A stretch of 64,000 bases of DNA from Gluconacetobacter sacchari (GTDB taxonomy: Bacteria > Pseudomonadota > Alphaproteobacteria > Acetobacterales > Acetobacteraceae): positions 1 to 64,000 of the forward strand of contig NZ_JABEQJ010000016.1 in the NCBI RefSeq assembly GCF_014174255.1, in the 5' to 3' direction. The position numbers were made by a program, and so were the translations under genes. Positions 8,355 to 26,652 of the stretch are shown one piece after another. The notes beneath the pieces are model-generated. The model saw only the letters and a list, made by a program, of their open reading frames with translations. It had not been told where the DNA came from and did no database searches. The first letter of the stretch is position 1. Each line of letters begins with the position of its first letter.

Positions 8355-8447
8355 GGAGGGGTGGCCGAGTGGCTGAAGGCGGCGGTTTGCTAAACCGTTG
8401 TACGGTGTCAAGCCGTACCGTGGGTTCGAATCCCATCCCCTCCGCCA
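8355..8447 (+). tRNA. tRNA-Ser (anticodon GCT), integration site of the mobile element
   Basis: A 93-nt class II tRNA with the long variable arm expected for serine (TGTACGGTGTCAAGCCGTACC region). The acceptor stem GGAGGGG/CCCCTCC is followed by G and encoded CCA. The anticodon stem GCGGT/ACCGT encloses TTGCTAA with anticodon GCT, reading AGC/AGU. Its 3' end lies within the 17-bp repeat copied at 26636, so the element inserted here without destroying the tRNA. Confidence 0.95.
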
Positions 8448-8450: not shown

Positions 8451-8546
8451 CCCCTTTTTATTCAATGTCATAGCATAGCAAAAGTGGCAGAATTCCGCGG
8501 AATTCACGCCATTTCGTGTTGCATGCCGATGCACGGAATTGCATCC

Positions 8547-8581
8547 TATCCCACACCTCGCGTGGTAAGAAGTGTGGGATA
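8547..8581. repeat. Inverted repeat before the integrase start; candidate arm or operator sites
   Basis: TATCCCACAC at 8547-8556 and GTGTGGGATA at 8572-8581 form a perfect 10-bp inverted repeat with a 15-bp spacer, ending three bases before the integrase ATG. The same 10-mer recurs at 26564 near the right end. The position suits integrase or excisionase arm binding, autoregulation of the integrase, or both. Confidence 0.5.
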
Positions 8582-8584
8582 AAA

Positions 8585-11132: not shown

Positions 11133-11642
11133 ATGCCCATCTTCCGCGCCATGCTGGACTGGCTTCGCCCCGGCAACCGGGTCACGCTGCGTTTTTACGT
11201 GCATCCCCGGATCGCCCGTGAAGCCCTCCCGCTGATCGACAAGCTGCTGTCCGATGACCCGGACGGCGAGACCTACCGCTGCACCATAGCTTTCTGGCGT
11301 CATACCCTGCGCCCGCCGCTTACGGTGTACCGGGGGGATGGTTCAACCTGCCGGATCGACGGCCCGTTGCAGGCTGCGGGACGCACCTATTTTCCATTGG
11401 GTGGCCTGATCGAAACGCCTGGCGTGACAGCCCACCTCACGCCCTTCGAAGCCCACGCGCTGGACATGCGCATCCGGGATGCGATCGAGCATGTCATCCG
11501 CGCCTGGACCGCCGAGCATGGGCTTTATGACCTGCCCCCCGTCGATCCCCATCTGGACCGCCGGACAGCGGATCGGGAGGCCATTTTCCAGATCGCGCAG
11601 TGGGCCGACCAGCATCGCCGGGAGGGTTCTGACCATGCGTGA
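11133..11642 (+). CDS. Unrecognised 169-residue protein of the mobilization region
   Basis: No recognised domain. The protein is soluble, begins MPIFRAMLDWLRPGNRVTLR, has a beta-rich centre with a short Cys/Arg stretch, and ends in helices with acidic and His residues (REAIFQIAQWADQHRREG). It lies between the AlpA regulator and the probable oriT/promoter region of the mob genes, on the same strand and with the same high GC. That argues for a part in element biology rather than defence cargo. Confidence 0.6.
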   Translation: MPIFRAMLDWLRPGNRVTLRFYVHPRIAREALPLIDKLLSDDPDGETYRCTIAFWRHTLRPPLTVYRGDGSTCRIDGPLQAAGRTYFPLGGLIETPGVTAHLTPFEAHALDMRIRDAIEHVIRAWTAEHGLYDLPPVDPHLDRRTADREAIFQIAQWADQHRREGSDHA

Positions 11643-11849
11643 CCCATGCCGGTTTTTCCATGCGAAGAGCAGCCCCGATGCTGCGCATCGGGCCACAGAA
11701 AGAGGAACACACCTCACGCACTGGCCTGCGGCGGTTTTCTGCCGTTTTTCGAGGGTGCGATCCGACACCAATTATTTTGGTAGCATCAAAAATGGCGGTT
11801 TTCCAACATTTTTCGCGCATGCGGATTGGGTGCGCCGGGATCACTGGCC
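11643..11849. other. Intergenic region before the mob genes; candidate oriT and promoter
   Basis: A 207-bp AT-richer gap directly before the mobilization genes. It holds small inverted repeats: AAAAATG at 11788-11794 paired with CATTTTT at 11807-11813, and ACCAA/TTGGT arms just upstream. MobF-type origins of transfer usually lie beside their relaxase genes and contain such repeats, so this is the most likely oriT site in the element. The nick site cannot be read from the sequence alone. Confidence 0.35.
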
Positions 11850-12215
11850 ATGAGCTACGTCCGGCATTCCATCCGCCTGCCGTTCGCGCTGGATCGAACG
11901 CTCCGGCAGCTTGCCGCCGGGCGCGAGATGACCCCGTATGCCCTGTTGCAGGACTGCGTCCGCATCGGCCTCGCCTCCATGACGCAGGAGGGCACGACGG
12001 GACCAATCTCCACCGAACTGGCGGAGGAACTGGGGCAGATCAGCGCGCGGATCGTCCATGTCGAGCGCCTGACCGAGCGCGCGCTGTACGTGTCCTGCGC
12101 CGCCTATGTCTTCGCCCGCGCCGCAGCACCCACCCGCATCGACGAGACCCGTCTCACCGACGACATCAATGCAGCCTTCCAGCGCCAGCTTGTCTTGGCG
12201 GGAGACGCCCCATGA
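11850..12215 (+). CDS. Mobilization accessory protein (MobC/TraJ-like, ribbon-helix-helix type)
   Basis: A 121-residue protein beginning MSYVRHSIRLPFALDRTLRQ. This has the look of a ribbon-helix-helix DNA-binding start, followed by long amphipathic helices (residues 45-100) able to form a coiled coil. Small proteins of this kind bind oriT and recruit the relaxase. Its stop overlaps the start of the coupling protein gene (ATGA), so the three mob genes form one translationally coupled operon. The frame can be read from 11826, but the ATG at 11850 gives a natural N-terminus. The role is inferred from fold pattern and position. Confidence 0.65.
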   Translation: MSYVRHSIRLPFALDRTLRQLAAGREMTPYALLQDCVRIGLASMTQEGTTGPISTELAEELGQISARIVHVERLTERALYVSCAAYVFARAAAPTRIDETRLTDDINAAFQRQLVLAGDAP

Positions 12216-14101
12216 CCAGTGATCTCGACCAGCAGGCGCATGCCCGCGCCCTGCGCGCCATCCGCCGCGCCCAGAGCGCCGCACGCTTTCGTGCTGGCTT
12301 CCTCGTGACCAGCCTCGGCCTGCTGGCCGGTGGCGGGCTGGTGGCGGTCGCCACCACCTCGCCGGAAGAACTGACCATAGCCGGACAGTTTCTTCTCGCC
12401 GAGGCCCAGCGTCCCATTATGGCCATCAGCCATCGGGACGTGCCGATGATCGTCATCCTTGATGGCCGACGCTATGACACCGGCGCTTACGCGCTGCTCG
12501 GCAGCGAAGACGTCCAGCATCGCGTCCTGACCCTGACCGAGCGCACTGGCCTGGGTGGTCTGCTCGGCATGGGGCTGGGCATCGGTGCCTTTGCCCTGAC
12601 CGAAGGTCGGCGGCGGCGTAAACGCGCACAGGAACTGGCCGACCGCACCATCGCCGGCAGTCGGGTCGTGTCCGAAGCCACGCTGGCGGCGGCCACGGAG
12701 AATACAGACGATCCCGCGCCCCTGCGGCTGGGCAGCGTCGCCTTGCCGCGCGCGATCGAGACGCGCCATCTGGCGATGATCGGCACCACGGGCGCAGGCA
12801 AGACCACCGCCCTGCGCCAGCTTCTCGACGTAATCGAAGCCCGTGGCGAGGCAGCGCTCGTTTATGACACGTCGGGAGATTTCGTCGCCCAGTATTACAA
12901 CCCCGTCCGGGGCGACATCCTGCTCAATCCTTTCGATGCGCGGGGCGTCTACTGGAACCCGTTCGACGAAATCCGCCATCCCGCCGACGCCGCGCGGATC
13001 GCCCGCTATCTGATCAGCGAGACGGGAGACCGGGACCGCGATGTCTGGCTGGAAACGGCCCGTATCCTCGTGGCCAACATCCTGCGTGAACTCTGGGAGG
13101 AAAAACGCGGCACACCGGCGCGACTGCTCGACACGCTGCAATATATGTCCAGCGCGGACATGGAGCGCTGGCTGGCCCATACCTCCTCGGCGCGAACCTT
13201 TGCCCAGGACGCCGAGCGCGCCACGGCCAGCGTGCTGTTCATGCTCGCTAAGGCCGCCAACCTGCTCATGTTCCTGCGTGCCGAACCGGCACAAGGCGGC
13301 GAAAGCTTTGCCTTTGCCCGCTTTTTCGCCGGGTTCGACAGCCACAAGGGCCGTCGCCCGTGGATTTTCGTGCCACGCAAGGAGGATCATTTCGAGGCCA
13401 TCAGGCCCTTGATGGCGCTCTGGCTGGAATGCGCGGCTTCAGCGACGCTTGGATTGCCGCCCTCCGACCGTCGCCGGATGTGGTTCCTGCTCGACGAGTT
13501 CCCGGACCTGCCGCGCGTGGACAACATGACCCGCCTGCTGCCGCAGGGGCGCAAGTTCGGCGCGGCCGTGATCCTGACCTTCCAGGCCATCGACCAGATG
13601 CGCAGCCGGTACGGAGAAAAGGACGCCGAAACGGTGCTGGGAAGCTGCAACACCAAGCTCTTCCTTCAACTCGCGGATATCGAGAGCCGGGACTGGGCAT
13701 CGAAGACGATCGGTCAGGCCGAGGTCGAAATCCAGACCCTTTCGGCCAATCTCGACCCCAAGACACGCAAGCCCCAGATCACGGTCGGCACACGACGCGA
13801 GGTCCGCCCGGCCGTGATGGAAAGTGCTTTGCGCCTGCCGCCCGGCTGGGCCTATCTCCTGTTGCCCGACGGACTGCCGGTGGCCCGCATCGCGCTCACC
13901 AACGCGCATATCATCGCGCGAGGCGCGGCCGGAACGCTGGCGTTCGAGCCGATCGGCCTGGATCAGACATTGTGGAAACAGACGCGGCCAGATGAGCCGA
14001 AGGCCGGAAAGGAGAAGAAGGAGGACAAACCCACCGGCGAGGCCCCGGCATCGAACCGCCCCGCCCGACGCAACCTGGCCTCCAAACCTGGTCCGGTCTG
14101 A
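12212..14101 (+). CDS. Type IV coupling protein (TraD/TrwB-like ATPase)
   Basis: A 629-residue inner-membrane ATPase that would carry the relaxase-DNA complex to a conjugation channel. Two N-terminal membrane segments (about residues 27-50 and 110-130) flank a periplasmic stretch. The P-loop GTTGAGKT is at residues 191-198, the Walker B is in WFLLDEFPDLPRV, and a late QAIDQMRSRYGEKDAETVLG segment is typical of the TraD/VirD4 ring. A basic, Lys-rich tail probably binds partners. The frame is open far upstream (to 11639), but only the ATG at 12212 is coupled to the previous gene. The stop overlaps the relaxase start. No secretion genes accompany it, so a foreign channel must be used. Confidence 0.9.
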   Translation: MTSDLDQQAHARALRAIRRAQSAARFRAGFLVTSLGLLAGGGLVAVATTSPEELTIAGQFLLAEAQRPIMAISHRDVPMIVILDGRRYDTGAYALLGSEDVQHRVLTLTERTGLGGLLGMGLGIGAFALTEGRRRRKRAQELADRTIAGSRVVSEATLAAATENTDDPAPLRLGSVALPRAIETRHLAMIGTTGAGKTTALRQLLDVIEARGEAALVYDTSGDFVAQYYNPVRGDILLNPFDARGVYWNPFDEIRHPADAARIARYLISETGDRDRDVWLETARILVANILRELWEEKRGTPARLLDTLQYMSSADMERWLAHTSSARTFAQDAERATASVLFMLAKAANLLMFLRAEPAQGGESFAFARFFAGFDSHKGRRPWIFVPRKEDHFEAIRPLMALWLECAASATLGLPPSDRRRMWFLLDEFPDLPRVDNMTRLLPQGRKFGAAVILTFQAIDQMRSRYGEKDAETVLGSCNTKLFLQLADIESRDWASKTIGQAEVEIQTLSANLDPKTRKPQITVGTRREVRPAVMESALRLPPGWAYLLLPDGLPVARIALTNAHIIARGAAGTLAFEPIGLDQTLWKQTRPDEPKAGKEKKEDKPTGEAPASNRPARRNLASKPGPV

Positions 14102-16875
14102 TGGTCGCCACCCTGTCGGCCCTGACCAACGCGGCCCAGGCGGCGAGCTACTACGAGGCCGACGATTATTACGCCGAGGGTGGCCTCGCCCCCTCCGAAT
14201 GGCAGGGCAAAGGGGCGGAGGCGCTGAAGTTGCAGGGCGCGGTCGAACACGACCAGTTCTCCCGGCTTCTGGAAGGCCGGGTCGCGGATCAGCAGCTTGG
14301 CGCGACGCGGGAGGGTGAAATCGCGCACCGGCCGGGCTGGGATTTGACCTTCAGCGCCCCAAAATCGGTGTCGATCCTGGCCGAGGTGGCGGGCGACCGC
14401 CGCCTGGTCGAGGCGCATGAGCGCGCGGTCAGGACCGCGCTGGGACTGGCCGAAACCCATTTCGCCGCAACGCGCATCCGGGAGGATGGAGCGGTCCGGC
14501 GTGAGACGACGGGGAATCTGGTCATCGCCACCTTTCGTCACGGCACGAGCCGCGCGCTCGATCCTCAGCTTCACAGCCATAACATCATTCTCAACATGAC
14601 CCAGGATGACAGCGGGCAATGGCGGAGCCTGGAACCCCGCGCCTTCTATCAATTGCAAAAGCAGTTGGGCGCGATCTACCGCCAGGAACTGGCGGGCGAA
14701 GTTCAGCACCTGGGCTACATGATCGACAGAGGGAAGGAGTCGAGCTTCGAGATCGCAGGCCTCGACGCGGCGACGCTGGAAGCGTTCAGCCAGCGATCCC
14801 AGGCGATTGAAGCGCATCTCAGCGAGCGCGGGACCAGCCGGGAAGAGGCGAGCGCCGCCGAGAAGCAGATGGCGGCACTCGATACCAGGCGGGCCAAGGA
14901 GGCCGTGCCTCATGCCGATCTGGTCCGGGAGTGGCGCGCGGTGGCGGACTCCGCCGGCTGGAACGAACAGGCCCGGCGCGAGATAGTCGCACGGGCCGAG
15001 GCGCGTGCCCGGACCCAGGCCACAGCCCAGGACGTGGAAAGCCCTTTCGCCCGCGAATGTGCCGCCGATCGGGCGGTCGCGCGGGGCGCGTCGATGCTTG
15101 GCGAACGGCAATCGGTCTTCGCGACAACCGCGCTGCACGAGGCGGCGGGGCGTTTCGCCTTCGGCGCGGTCGGCCATGCCGAGATCGGTGCCGCGATCGT
15201 GCGGGCGCAGAAAACCGGCGCGCTGGAAGCCCGCTCGTTCGTCGATCGCCGGGGTGCGGCCTTCGAGGGAATGACCACGGCCGCCAATATCGCGGACGAG
15301 GCTGCCTTGCTGCGCCTTGAAGAGAGTGGACGGAACCAGGTCGCACCGATCCTGGCACCTGTGGTCGCCGCGCGCGCCGTGGCCCAGGCGGAACGGCGCG
15401 CGGAATCACAGGGCCACGCATGGAACGAGGAGCAGCGCGCGGCGACCACGCAAATTCTTACCAGCCGCAACCGGATCATCGCCTTGCAGGGCGCGGCCGG
15501 CACGGCCAAGACCTCCACCGTGCTGGCAACCGTCGCGGAAGAAGCCCAGGCGCAGGGTCTTCGTGTCACGGCGCTGGCCCCGACCGCCTCGGCGGCCCAG
15601 GTGCTGGGCGACGCGCTTGGCAGTCGCGCCGACACGCTGGCGCGGCATCTTCTGGCACCCGGCAAACCGACCACCGCCGATCAGCTCTGGATCGTGGACG
15701 AGGCGTCGCTGGTGTCGGCACGCGACACCGCGAAGCTGCTGGCGCTGGCGGAAACCCATCGGGCGCGCGTGCTGCTGGTCGGCGACACGGCGCAACTTGG
15801 CTCAATCGAGGCCGGTGCCGCCTTCGGGCAGCTTCAGCAGGCGGGCATGGAGACCGCCCATCTCACCCGGATTCTGCGCCAGACCAACGAGCAGGCCCGT
15901 GCGGCGGTGGATGCCAGCCTTGCCGGCGATGCGAAGAAAGCCCTGGCGGCCCTTGATTCGGGCGGCGGGCATGTCGTCGAGCATGAGGGACGGGAAGCAC
16001 GGTTCGAGCAGATGGCGCGGGATTTCGCGGCGCTGGACGGAAAAGCCCGCAAGCGCACCCTGGTCATCGAGCCGTCGCGGGACGGGCGCGACATCCTGAC
16101 CGGAAAAATCCGCGAGCAACTGGCCGGGGCGGGTGCGCTGCGTGGGCCGACGATCGAAATGTCGCATCTCGTGGCCAGAGACATGACCCGCACCGAGGCG
16201 AAGGAGGCGAGCAGTTACGCGATCGGCGATGTCGTCCGCTTTACGAAGGATTATGCCGATAAGGGGGTCTCCCGCCGGGATGCCTATACCGTGGCCGGCA
16301 TCGACACGGAAAAGGCGGCCGTGATCCTGACGGCGCGTGACGGACGACGCATCGACTGGCGCTTGCGCCAATGGGGCGCCATGCAGTCCCAGGTATTCAC
16401 CGCCGAGCCGATCGAACTCCGTGCAGGTGATCGCGTGCAATTCACCCGCAATGATCGTGCAGCGGGGCGGGTCAACGGCCAGCAAGGGGAAGTGATCGGT
16501 GTCGATCCCCAGACGCGTGGCGTGACACTCCGCATGGCCAATCGCCGGATCGAGCATCTGACGCCGGACGACCCGCGCGACCGTCATATCGCCCATGGCT
16601 GGGTTGCCACGGCCTTTGCGGCGCAGGGGCGCACCGCCGATCGCGTCCTGGTCCATGCCGACAGCACGGTCAGCCAGCTTGTGGATCAGAAGAGTTTCTA
16701 TGTGGCTCTGTCCCGTGCCAGGGAGAGCGTTGCCGTTTATACCAATGACCGCGCCAAGCTCGTCACAGCTATTCAGGAGCGGTCAGGGCTGAAGCAGACC
16801 GCCCTTGCATCGGCGGCAGGCGATCAGATCGGGGACATTCAACGCAAGGCCGCAGCCAAAGGCATGGCCCTGTAA
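14101..16875 (+). CDS. MobF-family conjugative relaxase-helicase (TrwC/TraI-like)
   Basis: A 924-residue bifunctional protein that nicks oriT, stays covalently bound to the DNA and unwinds it. The TrwC relaxase domain has the paired tyrosines Y17-Y18 and Y23-Y24 and the three-His metal site with H147, H158 and H160 (QLHSHNIILN). The C-terminal superfamily 1 helicase has the P-loop GAAGTAKT near residue 465, WIVDEASLVS, GDTAQLGSI and a late SFYVALSRAR motif. In the P-loop, Ala stands where Gly usually precedes the Lys, a variant I believe is common in this relaxase group. It starts at the last base of the coupling protein gene. The length is typical of short MobF proteins. Confidence 0.93.
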   Translation: MVATLSALTNAAQAASYYEADDYYAEGGLAPSEWQGKGAEALKLQGAVEHDQFSRLLEGRVADQQLGATREGEIAHRPGWDLTFSAPKSVSILAEVAGDRRLVEAHERAVRTALGLAETHFAATRIREDGAVRRETTGNLVIATFRHGTSRALDPQLHSHNIILNMTQDDSGQWRSLEPRAFYQLQKQLGAIYRQELAGEVQHLGYMIDRGKESSFEIAGLDAATLEAFSQRSQAIEAHLSERGTSREEASAAEKQMAALDTRRAKEAVPHADLVREWRAVADSAGWNEQARREIVARAEARARTQATAQDVESPFARECAADRAVARGASMLGERQSVFATTALHEAAGRFAFGAVGHAEIGAAIVRAQKTGALEARSFVDRRGAAFEGMTTAANIADEAALLRLEESGRNQVAPILAPVVAARAVAQAERRAESQGHAWNEEQRAATTQILTSRNRIIALQGAAGTAKTSTVLATVAEEAQAQGLRVTALAPTASAAQVLGDALGSRADTLARHLLAPGKPTTADQLWIVDEASLVSARDTAKLLALAETHRARVLLVGDTAQLGSIEAGAAFGQLQQAGMETAHLTRILRQTNEQARAAVDASLAGDAKKALAALDSGGGHVVEHEGREARFEQMARDFAALDGKARKRTLVIEPSRDGRDILTGKIREQLAGAGALRGPTIEMSHLVARDMTRTEAKEASSYAIGDVVRFTKDYADKGVSRRDAYTVAGIDTEKAAVILTARDGRRIDWRLRQWGAMQSQVFTAEPIELRAGDRVQFTRNDRAAGRVNGQQGEVIGVDPQTRGVTLRMANRRIEHLTPDDPRDRHIAHGWVATAFAAQGRTADRVLVHADSTVSQLVDQKSFYVALSRARESVAVYTNDRAKLVTAIQERSGLKQTALASAAGDQIGDIQRKAAAKGMAL

Positions 16876-16986: not shown

Positions 16987-19761
16987 ATGAACGCCGTAGA
17001 AATTGAAGAAGCCGTATCTGCGCTGGCGGAGCAACCTTTTGATGCGGAAGAATTTCCTTACCTTTTCCTTCTGGCCTTCGGCAATAAAGACACCACCATC
17101 AAGCGTCTCCGGGCCACCAAAGGCTCGACCAATGCCTCTGACATCCCAGGCGCCGTTCTCCAGCGGAATAACATCCATATTGCGACCTGCCCGCCCGGTG
17201 AGGTAACGCGGACTTTGACCGCCCTCCGGGATAGCCCAGCCACGTCGAAGGCCAAGGCCAAGTTCATCCTGGCGACGGACGGTGAGACCTTCGAGGCGGA
17301 GGAATTGGATACAGGTGAGACCGTCGCCTGTGCCTATACGGACTTCCCGAATCATTTCGGCGCGTTCCTGCCCTTAGCCGGCATCACGACGGTCAAACAA
17401 ATCCGCGAAAGTTCGTTCGATATTCGCGCGACCAGCAAGCTGAACCGGCTGTATGTCGAATTGCTGAAGGACAATCCCGACTGGGGGACTGCTGACCGCC
17501 GCCATGACATGAACCATTTCATGGCTCGCCTGATCTTCTGCTTCTTTGCTGAAGACACGGATATTTTCCAGGATGGTCACTCTTTCACGAACACGGTCGA
17601 TACAATGACCGAGCGAGATTCGTCTAACACCCATGAAGTGATTGGCGAACTGTTCCGTGCAATGAATACCCCTACGGCAGAGCGAAAGAAAGCGGGCATT
17701 GCTCGTTACGCCGATCGGTTCCCATACGTTAATGGCGGCCTATTTTCGGGCAGCCCTGAAGTGCCGCGTTTCAGTAAGATCGCTCGATCCTATCTTATCC
17801 ATATCGGCGCCCTCGACTGGACGAAAATCAACCCGGACATCTTCGGGTCTATGATCCAGGCCGTGGCAGATGATGAGGAACGTGGCGCTCTTGGTATGCA
17901 CTATACGAGCGTTCCCAACATCCTCAAGGTGCTGAATCCTCTCTTTCTTGATGACCTGAGGGCACGACTAGATGAGGCCGGCGACAATGCCCGGATGCTC
18001 CTGAACCTACGCAAGCGTATGGCAAGGATCAGGGTGTTCGACCCGGCCTGTGGCAGCGGAAATTTCCTTGTTATCGCTTATAAGGAAATGCGGGCAATCG
18101 AGGCTGAGATCAACAGTCGTCGCGGGGAAGCCGATCGTCCTTCAGAGATTCCCCTGACTAATTTGCGTGGAATAGAACTACGAGATTTCCCGGCTGAGAT
18201 TGCGCGGCTTGCGCTCATTATCGCGGAATTCCAATGCGATGTCCTATATCGTGGTCAGAAGCTGGCCTTGGCCGAATTCCTTCCTTTGAACGCAGAAAAC
18301 TGGATTACCTGTGGGAATGCTCTTCGCTTGGACTGGTTGAGTATATGTCCGCCGACGGGAACCGGAGTGAAACACAGCGCAGATGATCTATTTCATTCTC
18401 CGTTAGATCAGCCGCAAATCGATTTCGAGAACGAGGGTGGAGAAACCTATATCTGTGGGAATCCGCCTTATAAAGGTAGTAAATGGCAGAATGAGAAACA
18501 AAAAATCGAGTTGGCAAATGCTTGGGTAAAATTTCCACATCTCGCCAAGATTACAGACTACGTTTCTGGTTGGATCGCTCGCTATTTGGATTACGCAGAA
18601 AAGGTTCCCGATGCTGTCGCTGCGTTCGTGACTACGAACAGCATCTGTCAGGGCCAACAAGCCTCCGAAATTTGGCCCGTAGCTTTTGCTCGTGGCATCG
18701 AAATTCGCTTCGCCCACACCCCGTTCCATTGGAGCAATCTTGCCAGTCATAACGCGGGCGTTACCGTTATAATTATTGGACTTGGCTGTAAGTCGACCAA
18801 GTCAAAGCAACTTTTTGACGATTCAAGCCTTGTCCGTGACTGTAATACGATCGGCCCGTATCTCGTGCCTAACAGGGACGATGTCGTGCAGAAGGCAACT
18901 GACCCAATCGGACGACAATCAATAATGCTATTCGGCAACATGCCGCGTGATGGCGGTCATCTCTTTCTTAGCACAGATGAAGCCGATGACCTCAGACGGA
19001 ATCCACAGACAAGCGCTTATGTTAAGCGATTCGTAGGTGCCGAGGAGTTGATTCATGGCAAGCAGAGATATTGTCTCTGGATCAATGATGAAGATGCTGT
19101 TACGGCAAAAAAAAGTGCGTTTATTGCCGATAGATTGGCGCTTGTTGCCAAAAACAGATTGCAGTCACAGGCGGGTTCAACAAGGGATTTTGCGAAACGA
19201 CCATATAGGTTTGTTCAGATCGGTGGCGTTGCTAAAAAGAACGCGATATTTGTGGCTGGAATCAGTTCTGAGAACCGAGAATATTTACCCTGCGATTATC
19301 TACCTTCAGAATATATTGCATCTAATAAATGCTTTGCCCTGTATGATGCCCCGCTATGGAATATGGCGCTTGTCGCGTCGCGCCTCCATTGGGTATGGAT
19401 TGGCACGGTTTGCGTGCGGATGCGGAACGATTTTTCCTATTCCAACACGCTGGGCTGGAATACCTTCCCCGTTCCCGCTCTGACCGACAAGATGAAAACC
19501 GACCTGACCCGCTGTGCTGAAGACATCCTGTTGGCACGCGAGGCGCATTTCCCCGCCACCATTGCGGAACTGTATGACCCCGAAAAAATGCCCGCCGATT
19601 TGAGAGAGGCGCACGACCGCAATGACGAAGTGCTGGAGCGCATCTACATTGGCCGACGTTTTCGCAATGATACGGAGCGACTGGAAAAACTGTTCGATCT
19701 CTATACCAAAATGACCGCCAGAACCGGATCGAAAAATAAGAAAAAGGCAGGGGCGGTATGA
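16987..19761 (+). CDS. MmeI-like adenine-specific DNA methyltransferase, first gene of a defence operon
   Basis: A 924-residue class I SAM-dependent N6-adenine methyltransferase. The SAM-binding motif FDPACGSGNF is at residues 351-360 and the catalytic motif NPPY at 492-495. Before it comes an MmeI-type helical spacer containing LIFCFFAEDTDIF, FPYVNGGLFSG and a GMHYTSVPNILKVL stretch. A long target-recognition region follows NPPY. MmeI enzymes carry a PD-ExK nuclease at the N-terminus; here the first 120 residues (AFGNKDTTIKRLRATKGS and on) show no clear nuclease motif, so the protein may only methylate. It starts a four-gene operon and its stop overlaps the next start (ATGA). Its GC content is lower than that of the mob genes. 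Methylation probably marks self DNA. Confidence 0.88.
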   Translation: MNAVEIEEAVSALAEQPFDAEEFPYLFLLAFGNKDTTIKRLRATKGSTNASDIPGAVLQRNNIHIATCPPGEVTRTLTALRDSPATSKAKAKFILATDGETFEAEELDTGETVACAYTDFPNHFGAFLPLAGITTVKQIRESSFDIRATSKLNRLYVELLKDNPDWGTADRRHDMNHFMARLIFCFFAEDTDIFQDGHSFTNTVDTMTERDSSNTHEVIGELFRAMNTPTAERKKAGIARYADRFPYVNGGLFSGSPEVPRFSKIARSYLIHIGALDWTKINPDIFGSMIQAVADDEERGALGMHYTSVPNILKVLNPLFLDDLRARLDEAGDNARMLLNLRKRMARIRVFDPACGSGNFLVIAYKEMRAIEAEINSRRGEADRPSEIPLTNLRGIELRDFPAEIARLALIIAEFQCDVLYRGQKLALAEFLPLNAENWITCGNALRLDWLSICPPTGTGVKHSADDLFHSPLDQPQIDFENEGGETYICGNPPYKGSKWQNEKQKIELANAWVKFPHLAKITDYVSGWIARYLDYAEKVPDAVAAFVTTNSICQGQQASEIWPVAFARGIEIRFAHTPFHWSNLASHNAGVTVIIIGLGCKSTKSKQLFDDSSLVRDCNTIGPYLVPNRDDVVQKATDPIGRQSIMLFGNMPRDGGHLFLSTDEADDLRRNPQTSAYVKRFVGAEELIHGKQRYCLWINDEDAVTAKKSAFIADRLALVAKNRLQSQAGSTRDFAKRPYRFVQIGGVAKKNAIFVAGISSENREYLPCDYLPSEYIASNKCFALYDAPLWNMALVASRLHWVWIGTVCVRMRNDFSYSNTLGWNTFPVPALTDKMKTDLTRCAEDILLAREAHFPATIAELYDPEKMPADLREAHDRNDEVLERIYIGRRFRNDTERLEKLFDLYTKMTARTGSKNKKKAGAV

Positions 19762-20591
19762 GCGCTATTACAGAGATCGACAAAAGATACCTTGAAAAAA
19801 TTCTTGGGATGCAGAGCGGTTACGTTCTGGATTATTCAGACACAACATTTCAGGAGTTTTTTACCCGTTACGGGATTGAGATTCATAGTCAAAAGTATCA
19901 GACGTATGGTTCATCAAAAGCCAGAAAAATGCGGGCCTTCTGGGAGAAAGAGCCTAACGCCATTGTCGGCCAAGTGCTTGATGAAATGTTAGGCGTCTAT
20001 GAGGTAAATTGTCTCCTAAACGGCAATCAACCTGATGCAGTCATTCTCGAACAATCCCGAAAGGTAGTCGCACGTCTGACCGGAAAACCCCTTGCCGCTA
20101 AAACTATGAGCGCTGAAGAAACCTTTCTTCAAAGTGAATTTTCCATCCCAAACCTCCAGAAACTCCCGGTTGAAGGAGCGGTCGCATCCATCATCGAATG
20201 TCGGTTAAAAGAAGCGCAAGCGACAATGTCTGCAAAAGCGTATCTTTCCACAATTTTTCTATGCGGTAGCGTGCTGGAAGCCGTTCTTCTCGGGGCCGCG
20301 CAGAAAGAGCCAGCACGATTTAATCGTTCACCTTCCTGTCCCAAAACCACCGAGGGCAAGCCCAAGCTATTTCATGACTGGACGCTCAGCCAGTTGATAG
20401 ATGTCTCATGTGAAATAGGATTACTGAAGCCAGACGTGCAGAAATTTAGTCATGGTCTTCGTGATTTTCGAAATTACATCCATCCATACGCGCAAATGTT
20501 ATCGCGCTTCTCGCCAGATAAACACACTGCGACACTTTGCTTCCAAACATTAAAGGCAGCATTGGCTAGTGTCGCAGGAGAGAGAGCATGA
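19758..20591 (+). CDS. AbiJ-NTD-like / HEPN-like protein inside the methyltransferase operon
   Basis: A 277-residue protein with two visible parts. The N-terminus (about residues 8-60: LGMQSGYVLDYSDTTFQEFF, then SSKARKMRAFWE) matches the pattern of the AbiJ N-terminal domain family, found at the front of many abortive-infection effectors. The C-terminal half (about 150-270) is helical and has LRDFRNYIHPY at 234-244. R235 to H242 gives the Rx4-6H spacing of HEPN ribonucleases, with an additional R-N pair in between. I infer a possible RNA-cleaving or signalling role on infection. The gene overlaps its neighbours by 4 bp on both sides, so it is fully embedded in the operon rather than an unrelated insertion. 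No enzymatic function is proven. Confidence 0.6.
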   Translation: MSAITEIDKRYLEKILGMQSGYVLDYSDTTFQEFFTRYGIEIHSQKYQTYGSSKARKMRAFWEKEPNAIVGQVLDEMLGVYEVNCLLNGNQPDAVILEQSRKVVARLTGKPLAAKTMSAEETFLQSEFSIPNLQKLPVEGAVASIIECRLKEAQATMSAKAYLSTIFLCGSVLEAVLLGAAQKEPARFNRSPSCPKTTEGKPKLFHDWTLSQLIDVSCEIGLLKPDVQKFSHGLRDFRNYIHPYAQMLSRFSPDKHTATLCFQTLKAALASVAGERA

Positions 20592-22642
20592 CCCAAAAAA
20601 TCCAATCCGTCCCTTCCGTCTCTGTCTCTTACGCGGCCAATGGCAGTTCAACCAAGGCCAATGCCATGGGGATGCGACCCATGCAGGAACGCGCCTATGA
20701 AAAGCGTGGCGAACAATATCTTCTCATCAAGTCTCCTCCAGCTTCGGGCAAAAGCCGGGCGCTTATGTTTATCGCCCTCGATAAGCTGGCAAATCAGGGA
20801 CTGAAGCAGGCCATTATCGTCGTGCCTGAAAGAAGCATTGGCGCAAGTTTCCATGACGAGCCTTTGACCCAGTTCGGCTTCTGGGAAGACTGGCACGTAG
20901 AACCCAGAAGAAACCTGTGTGACGCAGCCGGCGGTGATAATGGGGGCAAGGTCAATTCGGTCGAAGCGTTCCTGAAGAGTGACGACAAGGTGCTGGTCTG
21001 CACGCACGCCACCTTCCGCTTCGCCGTGGACAGGTTCGGTGTAGAGGCTTTCGACGATCGTCTTATTGCCGTCGATGAGTTCCATCACGTCTCGTCAGAT
21101 TCAGACAACAAACTAGGTCATCATCTCGGTGCGTTCATTGCCCGCGACAAAGTCCACATCGTCGCCATGACCGGCTCATATTTCCGGGGTGACGCAGTCG
21201 ATGTCTTGTCACCACAGGACGAGGCCAAGTTTGATACCGTAACCTATACCTATTACGAGCAGTTAAACGGCTATCGATACCTCAAGCATCTCGACATCGG
21301 CTATTTCTTCTATTCCGGGTCTTACGCCGAAGACATCCTGAAGGTTCTTGACCCAAATCAAAAAACCATCATTCACATCCCCAGCGTCAATTCGCGCGAA
21401 AGCACGAAAGATAAAATGAAGGAAGTGGAGCATATCATTGAAAATCTGGGCGACTGGCAGGGGGCTGACCCTGTTACCGGCTTTCAGTTGGTAAAAACGG
21501 AAGACGGCCGGACGTTGCGGATCGCTGATCTGGTGGACGATGACAAGAACAAGCGTGACCGCGTGTCCACCGCATTGAAAGACCCAACCCAGAAGAACAA
21601 CCGCGACCATGTGGACATCATCATTGCCCTGGGCATGGCCAAGGAGGGCTTTGACTGGATTTGGTGCGAACATGCGCTCACCGTTGGCTATCGATCCAGC
21701 CTGACCGAGATTATCCAGATCATAGGACGCGCTACCCGCGATGCGCCAGGGAAAACCCGCGCTCGCTTTACAAACCTTATCGCCGAGCCGGATGCGTCGG
21801 AACAGGCCGTAACCGAGGCCGTGAACGATACCCTTAAAGCCATTGCCGCCAGTCTGCTGATGGAACAGGTTCTCGCCCCCCGCTTCGAATTCAGATCGAA
21901 AGCGTCAACCAATGAACCGACTGACGGTTTCGATTATGGTGACGAAGGCTACCAACCTGATAAATGCAATGTCGGCTTCAACGAAGAAAAAGGTAAATTC
22001 CAGATCGAAATTAAAGGTCTGGCGGAACCCAAAAGCGAAGAAGCAACCCGCATCTGCGAAGAAGACCTGAACGAAGTCATCACGGCCTTCGTGCAAGACA
22101 AGACCGCTCTTGAGCGTGGGCTTTTCGACAAAGAACTCGTTCCGGAGGAATTGACGATCTCCCGCATGGGGAAAATCATCAAAGACAAATATCCCGAACT
22201 GGATGAGGAAGATCAGGAAGCCGTTCGACAGCACGCCATCGCGGCTCTAAACTTGACACAACAGGCGGCCCATATTGCGACGAGTGGCGATGGAGAGCCA
22301 GGAGCCAACACGGCCCTGATCGATGGCGTGCGTAAATTCGCAATGGACGTGCGAGAACTCGACATTGATCTGATCGATCGCATCAATCCGTTTGGTGAGG
22401 CTTATTCCATTCTGGCTAAAGCCATGAGCGAAGAGAGTCTGAAGCAGGTTGCGGCCGTAATCGGTGCCAAACGTGCGACGATGACATTGGAAGAAGCGCG
22501 TGTTTTATCTAAACGAGCGCTGAAGTTCATGCAGGAACGTGGCCGGCTCCCCTCCATAACCTCGACCGACCCCTGGGAGAAAAGCATGGCCGAGGGCGTT
22601 GCGTTCCTTGCTCGCATGAAGGCGGAGGCGGCTCGTGGCTAA
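20588..22642 (+). CDS. DEAD/DEAH-like superfamily 2 helicase of the defence operon
   Basis: A 684-residue SF2 helicase. The P-loop PPASGKS is at residues 50-56, the Walker B DEFH at 163-166, motif III MTGS at 193-196 and motif VI QIIGRATR at 376-383. It resembles the Res-type helicases of restriction systems and would translocate on DNA. The C-terminal 150 residues have no named domain, but they end with a short element, F-x4-G-R-x-P at 647-655 followed by E664, like that of helicase-associated modules. The GIY-YIG partner has the same element at its N-terminus. Start and stop overlap the neighbouring genes by 4 and 8 bp. Confidence 0.85.
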   Translation: MTQKIQSVPSVSVSYAANGSSTKANAMGMRPMQERAYEKRGEQYLLIKSPPASGKSRALMFIALDKLANQGLKQAIIVVPERSIGASFHDEPLTQFGFWEDWHVEPRRNLCDAAGGDNGGKVNSVEAFLKSDDKVLVCTHATFRFAVDRFGVEAFDDRLIAVDEFHHVSSDSDNKLGHHLGAFIARDKVHIVAMTGSYFRGDAVDVLSPQDEAKFDTVTYTYYEQLNGYRYLKHLDIGYFFYSGSYAEDILKVLDPNQKTIIHIPSVNSRESTKDKMKEVEHIIENLGDWQGADPVTGFQLVKTEDGRTLRIADLVDDDKNKRDRVSTALKDPTQKNNRDHVDIIIALGMAKEGFDWIWCEHALTVGYRSSLTEIIQIIGRATRDAPGKTRARFTNLIAEPDASEQAVTEAVNDTLKAIAASLLMEQVLAPRFEFRSKASTNEPTDGFDYGDEGYQPDKCNVGFNEEKGKFQIEIKGLAEPKSEEATRICEEDLNEVITAFVQDKTALERGLFDKELVPEELTISRMGKIIKDKYPELDEEDQEAVRQHAIAALNLTQQAAHIATSGDGEPGANTALIDGVRKFAMDVRELDIDLIDRINPFGEAYSILAKAMSEESLKQVAAVIGAKRATMTLEEARVLSKRALKFMQERGRLPSITSTDPWEKSMAEGVAFLARMKAEAARG

Positions 22643-23840
22643 AGGTTTTACCGACGAGGACGATGCGCTCCTGTCAGCGCTGGGCGTTGAAGTCGAGACA
22701 AAGAAAGAAGGCTCCCGAACTCCAAAAGAAGAGCGCATTATAGCTGGGTTTGAGGAAATCCAGCGGTTCGTGGACAAACACGGACGCTCCCCTCGTCATG
22801 GGGAAAATCACGACATTTTCGAGCGTCTATATGCAGTCCGCCTCGATCGGCTTCGCTCGCAACCCGATTGCATGGCATTGCTTCTGCCTATGGATCATCA
22901 GGGTATTCTCTCCAATGCCGTTGTCATTGAAGAGATCGATGAAAACATTAGCGACGATGAACTGCTTTCCATGCTTGGCGTGGCCAGCATCGAGCAGAAT
23001 TCAATCACTGACCTGCGCCACGTCCGCTCCGCAGCAGAAAAGCGGGCAGCCGAGGAAATCGCCAACCGGGAGCGCTGTGAGGATTTCGAGACTTTCAAGC
23101 CGATATTCAACGCAGTCCAGAAAGACATCGAGATCGGGACGCGCATTACACGCCCTATCAGGAAGGAAGCCGGCCTCCTGAAAACTGACATTAGACCGGG
23201 AGAATTTTTTATTCTCGGTGGTCAGACAGCATATGTTGCCGAGATTGGTGAGACCTTCAGAGCGCCCAATGGTGAGAGTGATGCGCGTCTCCGCGTCATT
23301 TATTCCAATGGAACAGAAAGCAATATCCTGCTTCGCTCCCTTCAGCGTGCGCTTTATAAAGATGAAGCCAGCCGCCGAGTGTCCGAACCCAGTGCCGGGC
23401 CATTATTCGCCGGAGAAAACGACGAAGACGATCTAGCCAGTGGCACCATTTATGTTCTCCAGAGCAAGTCGGATAACTCTATCGTCGCTGCTAACCGAGA
23501 CCTTATTCACAAAATCGGCGTAACGGGCGGAGATGTTGCCAAACGCATAGCCAATGCGAAAATCGACCCGACTTTCCTGCTGGCCGATGTGGAGGTCATT
23601 GCGACCTACAAGCTGTTCAACATCAGCCGCACCAAACTCGAAAAAATAATCCATCGCATCTTCGATCCAGCCCGACTGGATATCCAGATCGAAGACAGGT
23701 TCGGCAACTTCGTCATCCCGCGCGAGTGGTTTCTTGTGCCACTGTTTGTGATTAATGAGGCAGTGGAGAAGATCAAGGACGGTACAATTACTGGCTATGT
23801 TTATGAACCGCTAACAGCTCAACTTGTGTTGCAGGCTTAA
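22635..23840 (+). CDS. GIY-YIG nuclease (T5orf172 type), last gene of the defence operon
   Basis: A 401-residue protein ending in a GIY-YIG endonuclease domain of the T5orf172 kind: TIYVLQ at 270-275, HKIGVT at 291-296, R303, catalytic Glu probably E335, and GNFVIPREWF at 356-365. The N-terminus holds F-x4-G-R-x-P at 45-53, matching the helicase C-terminus. The motif DD-x-LLS-x-LGV occurs twice (9-18 and 106-115), which points to an internal duplication. A middle region (186-250) with DARLRVIYSNGTESNILLRS is conserved-looking but unnamed. It starts with GTG, overlapping the helicase stop by 8 bp. I infer that it supplies the cutting activity for the operon, since the methyltransferase lacks a visible nuclease. 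Confidence 0.82.
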   Translation: MAKGFTDEDDALLSALGVEVETKKEGSRTPKEERIIAGFEEIQRFVDKHGRSPRHGENHDIFERLYAVRLDRLRSQPDCMALLLPMDHQGILSNAVVIEEIDENISDDELLSMLGVASIEQNSITDLRHVRSAAEKRAAEEIANRERCEDFETFKPIFNAVQKDIEIGTRITRPIRKEAGLLKTDIRPGEFFILGGQTAYVAEIGETFRAPNGESDARLRVIYSNGTESNILLRSLQRALYKDEASRRVSEPSAGPLFAGENDEDDLASGTIYVLQSKSDNSIVAANRDLIHKIGVTGGDVAKRIANAKIDPTFLLADVEVIATYKLFNISRTKLEKIIHRIFDPARLDIQIEDRFGNFVIPREWFLVPLFVINEAVEKIKDGTITGYVYEPLTAQLVLQA

Positions 23841-24732: not shown

Positions 24733-25521
24733 ATGAATATGCATTCAGGTGGAAAACTAAACCGTCTCCAGCAGGAACTCCCCGAAGGACTCCTCGCTGA
24801 TGCAGCTTGGATGGAAGCCCACGGCTATTCGTCGGCGTTGAGGAGCCAGTATGTGCGCTCCGGCTGGCTCGAAAGCCCAGCTCGTCGCGTCTATCGTCGC
24901 TCACGCACGCCGCTAAGCTGGCAGCAGGTCGTGGTTTCCCTCCAGGCGGTACTGGACCTTCCGTTGACCGTCGGCGGCCGTACCGCGCTCGAACAGCAGG
25001 GTTATGCTCATTATCTGCCGACATCGGTTCGTGAGGTTCATCTTTACGGACCGAAACCCCCACCGACCTGGCTGCCAAGTCTGCCGCTCGACGTGGCCTT
25101 TCATTGGCACAACAGCTTGCGGCTGTTTCCAAGCCACATCGATCCATCGCCCATATCAAGTCCCGCTATGGTCAATGTCGGTGGTCTGGCCCTGCCCATT
25201 CGCTATTCCAGCAAAGAGCGCGCCGTTCTCGAATTACTCGATGAACTGCCCGAGCGTGAGACCTTCCACCAAGCTGATGCTTTGATTGAAGGAATGAGCG
25301 ATTTAAGCCCGCGCCGACTGCAAGTGCTGCTTGAGGCTTGCACTAGCGTGAAGGTGAAGCGGCTCTTCCTCTTCTTCGCCGACCGCCACCGTCATGCATG
25401 GCGACCCCGGCTCGATATATCTCGCATCGATCTGGGTGCGGGTAAGCGCGTCCTTGCCAAAGGAGGAAAACTCGATCCGCATTATAACATCACCGTGCCA
25501 TCCGACTTGGGAGCTTCGTGA
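24733..25521 (+). CDS. abiEi: AbiEi-type antitoxin of a type IV toxin-antitoxin pair
   Basis: A 262-residue AbiEi-family antitoxin and repressor. The N-terminal winged-helix part (about residues 15-60, with SSALRSQYVRSGWLESPARR) would bind the promoter. The rest matches the AbiEi domain seen with AbiEii, including GGRTALEQQGYAHYLP, an SSKERAVLELLDELP segment and an LSPRRLQVLLEACTSVKVKR segment. In known AbiE systems the antitoxin counters the nucleotidyltransferase toxin and represses the operon, and the pair gives abortive infection. Its stop overlaps the toxin start (ATGA over 25518-25521), which is normal for these pairs. Confidence 0.88.
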   Translation: MNMHSGGKLNRLQQELPEGLLADAAWMEAHGYSSALRSQYVRSGWLESPARRVYRRSRTPLSWQQVVVSLQAVLDLPLTVGGRTALEQQGYAHYLPTSVREVHLYGPKPPPTWLPSLPLDVAFHWHNSLRLFPSHIDPSPISSPAMVNVGGLALPIRYSSKERAVLELLDELPERETFHQADALIEGMSDLSPRRLQVLLEACTSVKVKRLFLFFADRHRHAWRPRLDISRIDLGAGKRVLAKGGKLDPHYNITVPSDLGAS

Positions 25522-26444
25522 AGCTCATGGTTTTCCTCGACACATATCAGCAGCAGGTGGCTCTCTTGATGCGGGTTGTTCCTTTCGTCGCGGAGGAACG
25601 GATTTTCGCGCTCAAGGGTGGCACTGCGATCAACCTGTTCGTGCGCGACATGCCACGCCTTTCCGTGGACATCGACCTGACTTATCTGCCGGTTGAGGGA
25701 CGGCCCGCATCACTTTCTGCGATTGATGCCGCGATGCTCAGAATCAAGGAGCGGATCGAACAGGGCATACCCGGTGTGAAGGTCAATACCTCACGCTCGG
25801 CCGATGAGAACGTCGTGACCAAGCTGGTCGTTCGGGTCGGGGGTGTACAGATCAAAATAGAGGTAACGCCGGTGTTGCGAGGCACCGTTTATGATCCGGC
25901 TGTGACAAGCGTGGTGCCCGCTGTCGAAGACGTCTTCGGTTTTGCCGAGATGCAGGTCGTGTCTTTCGCCGACCTTTATGCGGGCAAGATCGTAGCTGCA
26001 TTCGACCGCCAGCATCCCCGCGACCTTTTCGACGTGCGCGGCCTGCTGGCGAACGAGGGTGTCGACGATGCATTGCGTCGAGCTTTTCTGGTTTATCTCA
26101 TCAGCCATAACCGCCCGATGGCTGAAGTTCTTGCCCCGACCCGCAAACCGCTGCGCGAGGAGTTTGAGAGGGGCTTTGTCGGAATGACGGAAGAACCCGT
26201 CACTCTCACGGAACTGGAGGCCGCGCGGGAAGCAATTATCGCCGAGATGGTCGCTGCCATGCCGGAGGATCACCGGCATTTCCTCCTCAGCTTCAAGCGA
26301 GGCGAACCGGATTGGGAGCTACTTGGGATACCGGAAGCCCAGCATCTACCTGCTGTCATATGGAAACAGCGCAATCTTGCCAAGCTATCTGATGCCAAGC
26401 GGACTGAACTGACCGACGCATTGGAGCGGGTCTTGTTTTCATGA
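25518..26444 (+). CDS. abiEii: AbiEii-type nucleotidyltransferase toxin
   Basis: A 308-residue toxin of the AbiEii/AbiGii nucleotidyltransferase family. The DNA polymerase beta-like core has ALKGGTAINLF at residues 31-41 and DIDL at 51-54 as the metal-binding acids. A later block ADLYAGKIVAA, R164 and HPRDLFDV carries K157, R168, D169 and D172. Characterised members add nucleotides to tRNA acceptor ends or bind GTP and stop growth. All key positions are present, so an active toxin is likely. It is the last gene before the right attachment site, 191 bp away. Confidence 0.9.
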   Translation: MKLMVFLDTYQQQVALLMRVVPFVAEERIFALKGGTAINLFVRDMPRLSVDIDLTYLPVEGRPASLSAIDAAMLRIKERIEQGIPGVKVNTSRSADENVVTKLVVRVGGVQIKIEVTPVLRGTVYDPAVTSVVPAVEDVFGFAEMQVVSFADLYAGKIVAAFDRQHPRDLFDVRGLLANEGVDDALRRAFLVYLISHNRPMAEVLAPTRKPLREEFERGFVGMTEEPVTLTELEAAREAIIAEMVAAMPEDHRHFLLSFKRGEPDWELLGIPEAQHLPAVIWKQRNLAKLSDAKRTELTDALERVLFS

Positions 26445-26635: not shown

Positions 26636-26652
26636 CATCCCCTCCGCCAATT
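26636..26652 (+). repeat. Right attachment site (attR core), 17 bp
   Basis: An exact copy of CATCCCCTCCGCCAATT from 8434-8450. It marks the right end of the element; beyond it the sequence returns to GC-rich chromosomal character. Confidence 0.88.

What the first reader, a model, noticed from the sequence alone, without database searches (positions are those of the whole stretch)
16987..23840. Four-gene coupled defence operon: MmeI-like methyltransferase, AbiJ/HEPN-like protein, SF2 helicase, GIY-YIG nuclease
Seen: four genes with overlaps of 4, 4 and 8 bp, so all are translationally coupled, inside a mobile element beside AbiE genes. They encode an N6-adenine methyltransferase (FDPACGSGNF, NPPY), a protein with an AbiJ-like N-terminus and a HEPN-like Rx6H, a helicase (PPASGKS, DEFH, QIIGRATR) and a GIY-YIG nuclease. 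Known: MmeI enzymes combine methylation and cleavage in one chain; Type I, Type III, DISARM and BREX systems have other gene sets. Inference: this is a split restriction-modification-like system with an added abortive-infection arm, and I cannot match it to a named system.
Basis: partly seen in the sequence, partly recalled or inferred. Interest (0 to 1): 0.87.

Follow-up and report, generated by a model that had tools for sequence, protein, structure and literature searches.

The report
Restriction operon with swappable effector slot
A mobile DNA element in a bacterium related to acetic-acid bacteria carries a known kind of restriction-modification operon (methylase, helicase, nuclease) with one interchangeable position, here filled by a predicted RNA-cutting suicide protein whose relatives also sit inside ordinary type I restriction operons; it suggests a plug-in backup-defence design that can be tested.

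Summary
In detail: four overlapping genes (16987-23840) lie in an 18.2-kb integrative element bounded by a tRNA-Ser att repeat. Three of them form a known cluster, the B. subtilis DnmA-YeeB-YeeC type: an MmeI-like methylase without the nuclease motif, an SF2 helicase and a GIY-YIG (T5orf172/MUG113) protein. So 'cannot match it to a named system' does not hold for those three. The fourth protein (P2, 277 aa; helical model, invariant Rx6H, HEPN-like) is not a core part: it occupies a variable slot between methylase and helicase. Among 95 near-related loci the slot is empty in 45 and holds genes in 46 (P2, RhuM, YhcG/DUF1016, PLD-like, Schlafen-AlbA, BrnT, HicAB, several unknown families). The helicase-nuclease junction is never opened (0 of 93 measured). 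A 4-bp ATGA junction is mostly kept, slot empty or full. A second variable block is the methylase's target-recognition region. P2 homologues also sit after hsdS in two type I restriction operons. Best reading: a split, type-I-like restriction system with exchangeable specificity and an exchangeable backup effector, P2 being a PrrC-like abortive RNase. Toxins embedded in restriction operons are known; this slot and the P2 family appear undescribed in the papers searched.

The parts
8355..8447 (+). tRNA-Ser(gct), chromosomal target; 8434-8450 is the left att repeat
   Evidence: ARAGORN; repeat CATCCCCTCCGCCAATT
8516..9796 (+). tyrosine integrase of the element
   Evidence: ORF; Arm-DNA-bind_3, Phage_int_M, Phage_integrase
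11639..14101 (+). TrwB/TraD-like coupling protein
   Evidence: TrwB_AAD_bind 6.6e-118
14101..16875 (+). TrwC relaxase-helicase
   Evidence: TrwC 4.5e-93
16987..19761 (+). MmeI/DnmA-like N6-adenine methyltransferase without the PD-ExK nuclease motif; aa ~490-832 (target recognition) is the first variable cassette
   Evidence: Pfam; nuclease motif absent; TRD variability; PDB relative MmeI 5hr4
19758..20591 (+). P2: occupant of the variable effector slot; N-terminal module shared with an Abi_C and an Mrr protein, C-terminal HEPN-like domain with Rx6H (R235-H242)
   Evidence: alignments; model; Foldseek; slot; type I context
20588..22642 (+). SF2 helicase (YeeB-like): PPASGKS, DEFH, QIIGRATR
   Evidence: Pfam; DE[FAC]H 108 of 109, QI[IV]GR[AG]TR 105 of 109, Walker A pattern 99 of 109 rows
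22635..23840 (+). GIY-YIG (T5orf172/MUG113) protein (YeeC-like) with a conserved ~260-aa N-terminal region
   Evidence: Pfam; at least 93% identical at Y273, K293-I294-G295, R304, E364-W365-F366 over 114 sequences, repeat contigs included
26636..26652 (+). right att repeat; end of the integrated element
24733..26444 (+). neighbouring AbiEi-AbiEii type IV toxin-antitoxin pair, separate cargo of the same element
   Evidence: Pfam, PADLOC

Best explanation
The operon is a split, ATP-dependent restriction-modification system of the DnmA-YeeB-YeeC type, carried as cargo of an integrative mobilizable element. The MTase reads an asymmetric site with its TRD and methylates adenine in host DNA. On unmethylated foreign DNA the same MTase/TRD acts as the specificity module that loads the SF2 translocase, and the GIY-YIG protein cuts. 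P2 occupies an exchangeable slot between the modification and restriction halves. It is a latent HEPN-type RNase whose N-terminal module holds or senses. It is co-translated with the complex so that, if restriction is inhibited or overwhelmed, P2 degrades RNA and aborts the infection, the logic of PrrC in EcoprrI. Shown here: gene content, order, overlaps, missing nuclease motif, two variable cassettes, P2 relatives in type I operons, HEPN-type motif. Inferred: restriction activity, site asymmetry, which protein cuts, RNase activity, and that P2 is triggered by the state of the RM complex.
For: Trio in conserved order in 111 of 115 loci mapped. No EQK nuclease motif in the first 140 aa of 98 trio MTases; present in 3 of 3 stand-alone MmeI-type enzymes. 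Helicase and GIY motifs strongly conserved. TRD block (aa 490-629, 630-832) median 45% identity to the window against 77-86% for the other three MTase segments over 81 MTases; between close relatives such as L044 and L043, 91-95% alike on either side, blastn finds no match over about aa 495-824. Slot: >120 bp between MTase and helicase in 46 of 91 near loci against 0 of 93 between helicase and GIY, Fisher p=3.5e-18 with loci treated as independent. Contents are largely defence-like where a family is known. ATGA junction after the MTase in 34 of 45 empty and 34 of 40 filled loci measured. At least 41 changes of slot state on the helicase tree, 20 being the floor for 21 states. P2 homologues follow hsdS, with the same ATGA overlap, in two type I operons. 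P2: invariant Rx6H, helical model, HEPN proteins among the weak best fold matches. Precedents, passages read: PrrC (PMC3874165), DarTG2 and TgvAB in type I operons (PMC12255303, PMC11411939), toxin displacement in RM operons (PMC3506569). As reported in PMC9973331: deleting V. crassostreae dnmA or yeeB homologues raised sensitivity to some phages.
Against: The B. subtilis trio showed no restriction of plasmid uptake and no protection from three phages (passages of PMC7261158, PMC9973331), and V. crassostreae deletions had no effect on other phage subclades, so activity of this copy is not assured. No direct evidence links P2 to the RM complex: full-length P2 relatives also occur with no RM genes in view (L144, L145, L194, L195), as expected of an independent Abi gene. 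TgvAB, embedded in a type I operon, protects without HsdR restriction (PMC11411939). P2 has no Pfam HEPN hit above cut-off; Foldseek gives no match at E<=0.001, and haemoglobins score like the HEPN proteins. Relatives of two other slot families on eight plasmids were in no type I operon within the ~10 kb shown. The helicase-GIY junction is open in 3 of 13 distant relatives.
Confidence: 0.55

Rival explanations
1. P2 is an independent abortive-infection gene that merely uses the operon as a safe landing site and for its expression (defence-island hitchhiking); it senses phage by itself and has no functional link to the RM trio.
For: Slot contents are unrelated proteins including toxin-antitoxin genes (BrnT, HicAB) and PADLOC candidates PDC-S02, PDC-S05, PDC-S67. 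Full-length P2 relatives exist without RM genes in view. TgvAB embedded in a type I operon protects independently of HsdR (PMC11411939 passages).
Against: P2 recurs at a like position, after the modification/specificity genes and before the restriction genes, in two different kinds of RM operon, and the ATGA junction after the MTase is kept in 34 of 40 filled loci; a pure passenger needs neither. In near relatives only this junction opens, not helicase-GIY.
Confidence: 0.35
2. The operon is a decayed restriction system kept for methylation-based gene regulation (the orphan-MTase reading proposed for B. subtilis DnmA); P2 and the nuclease genes no longer act in defence.
For: B. subtilis results (PMC7261158, PMC9973331 passages).
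Against: All four frames are intact with conserved motifs; close relatives keep intact helicase and nuclease while TRD and slot turn over quickly, the pattern expected of an active defence; the element looks mobile.
Confidence: 0.1

Closest known systems
DnmA-YeeB-YeeC cluster (B. subtilis; V. crassostreae homologues)
   Same: MmeI-like MTase without nuclease motif, then SF2 helicase, then C-terminal T5orf172/GIY-YIG protein, in that order (passages of PMC9973331, PMC7261158)
   Different: P2 stands between MTase and helicase; the passages read mention only an unspecified 'Uncharacterized protein family' near dnmA and no slot
MmeI (type IIL restriction-modification enzyme)
   Same: all five MmeI Pfam domains; PDB 5hr4 is the only solved relative found at E<=1e-5, E 2.7e-129
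   Different: N-terminal D...EQK nuclease motif absent; separate helicase and nuclease genes
EcoprrI-PrrC and other type I operons with embedded effectors (DarTG2, TgvAB)
   Same: an effector gene inside an RM operon; P2 itself sits between hsdS and hsdR in L193 and, followed by an IrrE-like gene, in L143
   Different: the host system here is not type I; P2 has no ATPase domain hit, and homology to PrrC, DarTG or TgvAB was not tested beyond the family libraries
AbiJ-type and DUF4145-type HEPN proteins
   Same: helical C-terminal domain with Rx6H and an N-terminal module that also occurs with Abi_C and Mrr nuclease domains
   Different: no Pfam, PADLOC or NCBIfam model reaches significance for P2

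Membership tests
DnmA-YeeB-YeeC-type cluster | MmeI-like MTase lacking the PD-ExK motif | tested here: met
   Pfam; motif absent
DnmA-YeeB-YeeC-type cluster | SF2 helicase and C-terminal T5orf172/GIY-YIG gene downstream in that order | tested here: met
DnmA-YeeB-YeeC-type cluster | helicase directly next to the MTase (positions +1 and +2) | tested here: not met
   P2 intervenes here; met in 45 of 91 classified near relatives
DnmA-YeeB-YeeC-type cluster | sequence homology to the B. subtilis proteins themselves | not tested
   B. subtilis sequences were not compared; only an Acetobacter plasmid homologue annotated YeeB (H32)
MmeI / type IIL | MTase, helical spacer, TRD and C-terminal domains | tested here: met
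MmeI / type IIL | active N-terminal D...ExK nuclease in the same chain | tested here: not met
Type I RM | separate HsdS specificity subunit and HsdR with HSDR_N nuclease | tested here: not met
   no such domains among the seven window proteins scanned; present in the P2-bearing type I operons L143 and L193
BREX / DISARM and other systems modelled in PADLOC 2.0.0 | system-specific signature proteins | tested here: not met
   only partial shared-motif hits (PglX, DrmMI, MAD2 for the MTase; PbeA 6.3e-7, SngC, Cas3 for the helicase; best 25 of 37 listed for the MTase); NCBIfam hits far below cut-offs; Hma not looked at separately
HEPN ribonuclease (P2) | conserved Rx4-6H with a polar residue after R | tested here: met
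   R235-D236...H242; R and H invariant in 15 of 15 rows of A2; also kept in the type I copies; in L144 the residue after R is G
HEPN ribonuclease (P2) | HEPN fold | tested here: inconclusive
   helical model, pLDDT 74.2, pTM 0.50; HEPN proteins among top Foldseek hits but none at E<=0.001
HEPN ribonuclease (P2) | RNase activity | not testable with these tools
   -
AbiJ | match to AbiJ models | tested here: not met
   no Pfam/PADLOC/NCBIfam match
PrrC-like anticodon nuclease | ABC ATPase domain plus RNase domain (recalled; the abstract of PMC2610378 in the listing mentions PrrC's ABC ATPase) | tested here: not met
   P2 is 277 aa with no ATPase domain hit
PrrC-like anticodon nuclease | gene embedded in an RM operon | tested here: met
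   window; L143 and L193

The most novel reading that the evidence does not exclude
DnmA/MmeI-type RM operons are a two-socket immune chassis: one socket swaps target specificity (TRD), the other swaps a second-layer effector that is held silent by, and released on failure of, the RM complex. The same effectors (P2 shown) plug into type I RM operons, so a common interface or trigger is shared by two different RM architectures, and P2 is the founding member of an undescribed family of RM-guarded HEPN RNases.
Probability: 0.3. Interest if true: 0.75.

Novelty: new variant of a known kind. Interest (0 to 1): 0.5.

Why it matters
If the slot model holds, each slot occupant is a candidate anti-phage effector, several with no family assignment (P2, the 264-aa, 286-aa, 137-143-aa and 444-aa families). 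It puts a many-locus comparison behind the 2012 proposal (PMC3506569) that RM systems repeatedly exchange attached suicide toxins. It may also bear on why B. subtilis DnmA-YeeB-YeeC looked inactive (that locus was not examined here): the slot was filled about half the time in relatives with a helicase about two thirds identical or more, but empty in 13 of 14 and 8 of 9 more distant ones.

Tried and rejected
Fixed four-gene system: rejected, the P2 position is empty or differently filled in most relatives. Known named system: PADLOC 2.0.0, NCBIfam and Pfam give only the type IIG/MmeI label for the MTase and weak or general-domain hits for the rest. Single-sequence AlphaFold2 of P2 was poor (pLDDT 47.9); only the 15-row model was used. 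Solved-structure searches by sequence for P2 and for the GIY protein found nothing meaningful. Relatives of the 264-aa and 286-aa slot families were looked at on 8 plasmids (of 124 and 36 matching records) and were not in type I operons; three further records list the 286-aa relative beside a DNA methyltransferase. So sharing with type I is shown for P2 only. The P2 tree (16 rows) has one starred branch and cannot date or direct exchanges between trio and type I operons. A regular expression D-x7-13-[EDQ]-x-K hit 8 of 98 trio MTases; none contains EQK in the first 140 residues, so I count them as chance.

Slot labels were given by hand from Pfam hits of representatives, BLAST clusters and, for HicAB (L083, L139, L140), BrnT in L101 and DUF1016 in L062, by eye from translations. 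Seven loci that repeat a contig were removed before the tree and slot counts, but not from the motif counts. Two near loci were unlabelled (L081, L149); two had a gap but no + strand ORF (L104, L132; counted as 'filled' in the 26 filled/empty changes). Change counts were not compared with shuffled labels. In one search the empty-locus start codon was the one nearest the MTase stop, which favours small values. The 17 pairs were picked by me as close relatives with different slots. L196-L199 (N-terminal-only P2 matches) were fetched but not examined. Slot states of L204-L225 were read by eye from the table. Not every ORF of the element was scanned against Pfam.
Full report
WHAT IS THERE. The four ORFs exist exactly as described: 16987-19761, 19758-20591, 20588-22642, 22635-23840, all on the + strand, overlapping by 4, 4 and 8 bp. 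Pfam places the first in the MmeI family over its whole length, the third among SF2 helicases, and the end of the fourth (aa 270-380) in the GIY-YIG families T5orf172 and MUG113; the second, here called P2, has no family (DUF4145 at E=0.19). PADLOC calls the first 'REase_MTase_IIG' (9.7e-271); the helicase has only partial hits (best PbeA, 6.3e-7), the GIY protein one at 0.011, P2 none; NCBIfam has nothing above its cut-offs.

THE MOBILE ELEMENT. The repeat CATCCCCTCCGCCAATT occurs at the 3' end of tRNA-Ser (8434-8450) and again at 26636-26652, with none in 100 shuffles. Between the copies lie a tyrosine integrase, a TrwB-like coupling protein and a TrwC relaxase, the four genes, a convergent ORF and AbiEi/AbiEii. 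I noticed no mating-pair genes, though not every ORF was scanned, so I read it as an integrative mobilizable element.

THREE OF THE FOUR ARE A KNOWN CLUSTER. Passages of PMC9973331 and PMC7261158 describe dnmA-yeeB-yeeC of B. subtilis: an MmeI homologue without the endonuclease motif, an SF2 helicase and a C-terminal T5orf172 protein, conserved in that order; Morgan et al. 2009 (not held; known only through those papers) had noted the missing motif and suggested a type-I-like system. In B. subtilis the cluster did not restrict plasmid uptake or three phages; for V. crassostreae homologues, deletion of dnmA or yeeB is reported to raise sensitivity to some phages and not others. The present MTase fits: none of 98 trio MTases (window included, 6 from repeat contigs, 10 distant) has EQK in its first 140 residues, whereas three stand-alone relatives (L200, L201, L202) have D...VEQK or D...IEQK. 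The only solved relative found is MmeI, 5hr4, aligned from residue 91 on. Core motifs of helicase and GIY proteins are strongly conserved.

P2 SITS IN A VARIABLE SLOT. Helicase relatives were found in 51 of 395 genomes of the order and 23 of 398 of the phylum sample, own genome included in both, in 264 plasmid records at E<=1e-5, 154 of them over at least 80% of the query, and in 581 stretches of genome contigs, of which the best 80 were kept. I mapped the window proteins on 115 loci (L043-L142, L148-L162); 111 show MTase, helicase and GIY in order. After removal of 7 repeats and addition of the window, 95 have a helicase over 70% identical and 14 are more distant. Of the 95, 45 have MTase and helicase adjacent, 46 hold one or more genes between them, 2 have a gap without a + strand ORF and 2 could not be classified. 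Contents: P2 (9 with the window, once more with a second gene, and a broken copy in L065), a 264-aa family (5, plus 1 with RhuM), YhcG/DUF1016 (4), a 286-aa family (4, plus 1 with AlbA), BrnT (3), HicAB (3), PLD-like (3+1), Schlafen-AlbA_2 (2, plus 1 in combination), RhuM (2, plus 3 in combination), a 137-143-aa family (2, plus 1 with P2), and single cases including a 444-aa protein and a PADLOC PDC-S67 protein.

CONTROLS. In the near set a gap over 120 bp occurs between MTase and helicase in 46 of 91 loci measured and between helicase and GIY in 0 of 93 (Fisher p=3.5e-18, treating loci as independent, which overstates it). In the distant set it is 1 of 14 and 3 of 13. In the phylum sample, read by eye, of 12 helicases at 66-80% identity 4 have an empty slot, 6 a filled one and 2 have no MTase within the fetched 1.5 kb; of 9 more distant ones with an MTase in view 8 are empty. 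On the helicase tree the slot state changes at least 41 times over 93 labelled rows (20 is the floor for 21 states) and filled/empty at least 26 times (no shuffled control). Close pairs show it directly: helicase and GIY genes of L097 (444-aa gene) and L098 (empty) are 91% identical at DNA level from 5 bp before the helicase start, and the match upstream ends near the MTase stop. In 15 of 17 chosen pairs DNA matches are found on both sides of the slot (in two of these, L109/L112 and L106/L099, one slot gene is shared); L085/L138 has no match over the MTase end and L075/L062 lacks the MTase side. The 4-bp ATGA junction after the MTase is present in 34 of 45 empty loci (start codon chosen nearest to the stop) and in 34 of 40 filled loci measured (first start of the ORF); the slot gene's own junction with the helicase is looser (4-bp overlap in 11 of 40, the rest from -15 to +182).

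A SECOND CASSETTE. Over 81 MTases of near relatives the median identity to the window is 77%, 85% and 86% for aa 1-327, 328-485 and 834-911 but 45% for 490-629 and 45% for 630-832. L043, L124 and L126 are 90-99% identical in the outer segments but 31% in 630-832; L123 and L129 share P2 but differ there (52%, 40%). Specificity region and slot are thus exchanged separately.

P2 BEYOND THIS SYSTEM. P2-first searches matched 11 of 385 genomes of the class and 13 of 398 of the phylum sample, mostly partially. Full-length relatives and settings: trio in the window and in G784 (L192, with further genes including a reverse transcriptase between P2 and helicase); type I RM in G897 (L193: hsdM, hsdS, P2, hsdR) and G490 (L143: hsdM, hsdS, P2, IrrE-like gene, hsdR), P2 overlapping hsdS by the same ATGA in both; no RM gene in view in G477, G642 (43%, frame interrupted), G887 and G794. 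A P2 fragment in G679 (L147) also lies beside an IrrE-like gene and an HsdR-like start (by eye). Among 14 viral loci, one (L178) has full-length P2 before the start of a trio helicase, and L179-L190 match only from residue 95-119 on; in the six of these that I examined the ORF has another N-terminus. The N-terminal part alone occurs in front of Abi_C (L203) and Mrr_cat (L234) domains. P2 is thus a two-module protein with an AbiJ kind of architecture (HEPN survey PMC3710099, passages), but not a member by any model.

P2 FOLD. R235 and H242 of Rx6H are invariant in 15 of 15 rows and kept in the type I copies. The model from that alignment is helical, pLDDT 74.2, pTM 0.50, weakest at 19-26, the linker and 239-245. 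Foldseek found no PDB match at E<=0.001; among the ten weak best are AbiA (8oz7), HEPN AF0298 (2hsb), Csx1-Crn2, Csm6 (5yjc) and HEPN toxins (7ae6, 7ae8), but also three haemoglobins. HEPN is likely, not proven.

HOW IT PROBABLY WORKS. Split restriction: MTase with TRD for specificity and self-marking, helicase as motor, GIY-YIG as cutter (inferred). P2 as latent RNase released when restriction fails (inferred). Grounds for the last step: a like position in two unlike RM systems, retained coupling to the gene before it, and the PrrC precedent, in which an embedded anticodon nuclease is kept silent by the type I enzyme and set free by a phage inhibitor (PMC3874165, PMC12707154 passages). Against it: TgvAB, embedded likewise, is independent of HsdR restriction, and P2 can occur alone. 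I put guard-type coupling somewhat above hitchhiking.

WHAT IS NEW. Embedding of effectors in RM and BREX operons is established (passages; Payne et al. 2024 is cited there, not read), and 'repeated toxin displacement' in RM operons was proposed in 2012. I found no description of the slot in DnmA/MmeI-type operons or of the P2 family in the papers searched (listings and passages of the papers named); most subscription papers are not held, so absence from print is not shown. It is a new variant of a known kind with a well-defined test programme.

Noticed in passing
G000:C46:14651-16726 (L002, L148): The same genome holds a second, distant copy of the trio (helicase 45% identical, MTase about 39%, GIY about 32%) with an empty slot.
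   Followed up: partly
window 23788-24606 (-): A convergent 272-aa ORF overlaps the end of the GIY-YIG gene by 53 bp; no family in Pfam, PADLOC or NCBIfam. Its 'RCGLVHG' is an Rx4H that could mark another HEPN-like protein.
   Followed up: no
window 8434-26652: An 18.2-kb integrative element in tRNA-Ser with TrwB/TrwC-type mobilization genes and no mating-pair genes noticed; its cargo is the RM operon plus AbiE.
   Followed up: yes
L192 3747-10858: Slot expanded to several kb: P2, a 141-aa ORF, an HTH protein and a reverse transcriptase (RVT_1) between MTase and helicase.
   Followed up: partly
L200 3692-7557: A stand-alone MmeI-type enzyme on a Methylorubrum plasmid is followed after 8 bp by a phospholipase-D-family gene, reminiscent of the PLD-like genes in the slot.
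   Followed up: no
L179-L190: Viral contigs carry the P2 C-terminal part behind a different N-terminal domain in the six examined, in one case (L179) next to genes that look like DNA methylases by eye.
   Followed up: partly
L065 2456-4995: Slot with a membrane-protein-like ORF, a disrupted P2 copy and RhuM in a row, suggesting accretion and decay.
   Followed up: no
L109, L112 and L120, slot: The 137-143-aa slot family has no Pfam family (L112, L120 scanned); its D..E..KxQxK stretch looks like a PD-(D/E)XK nuclease by eye.
   Followed up: no
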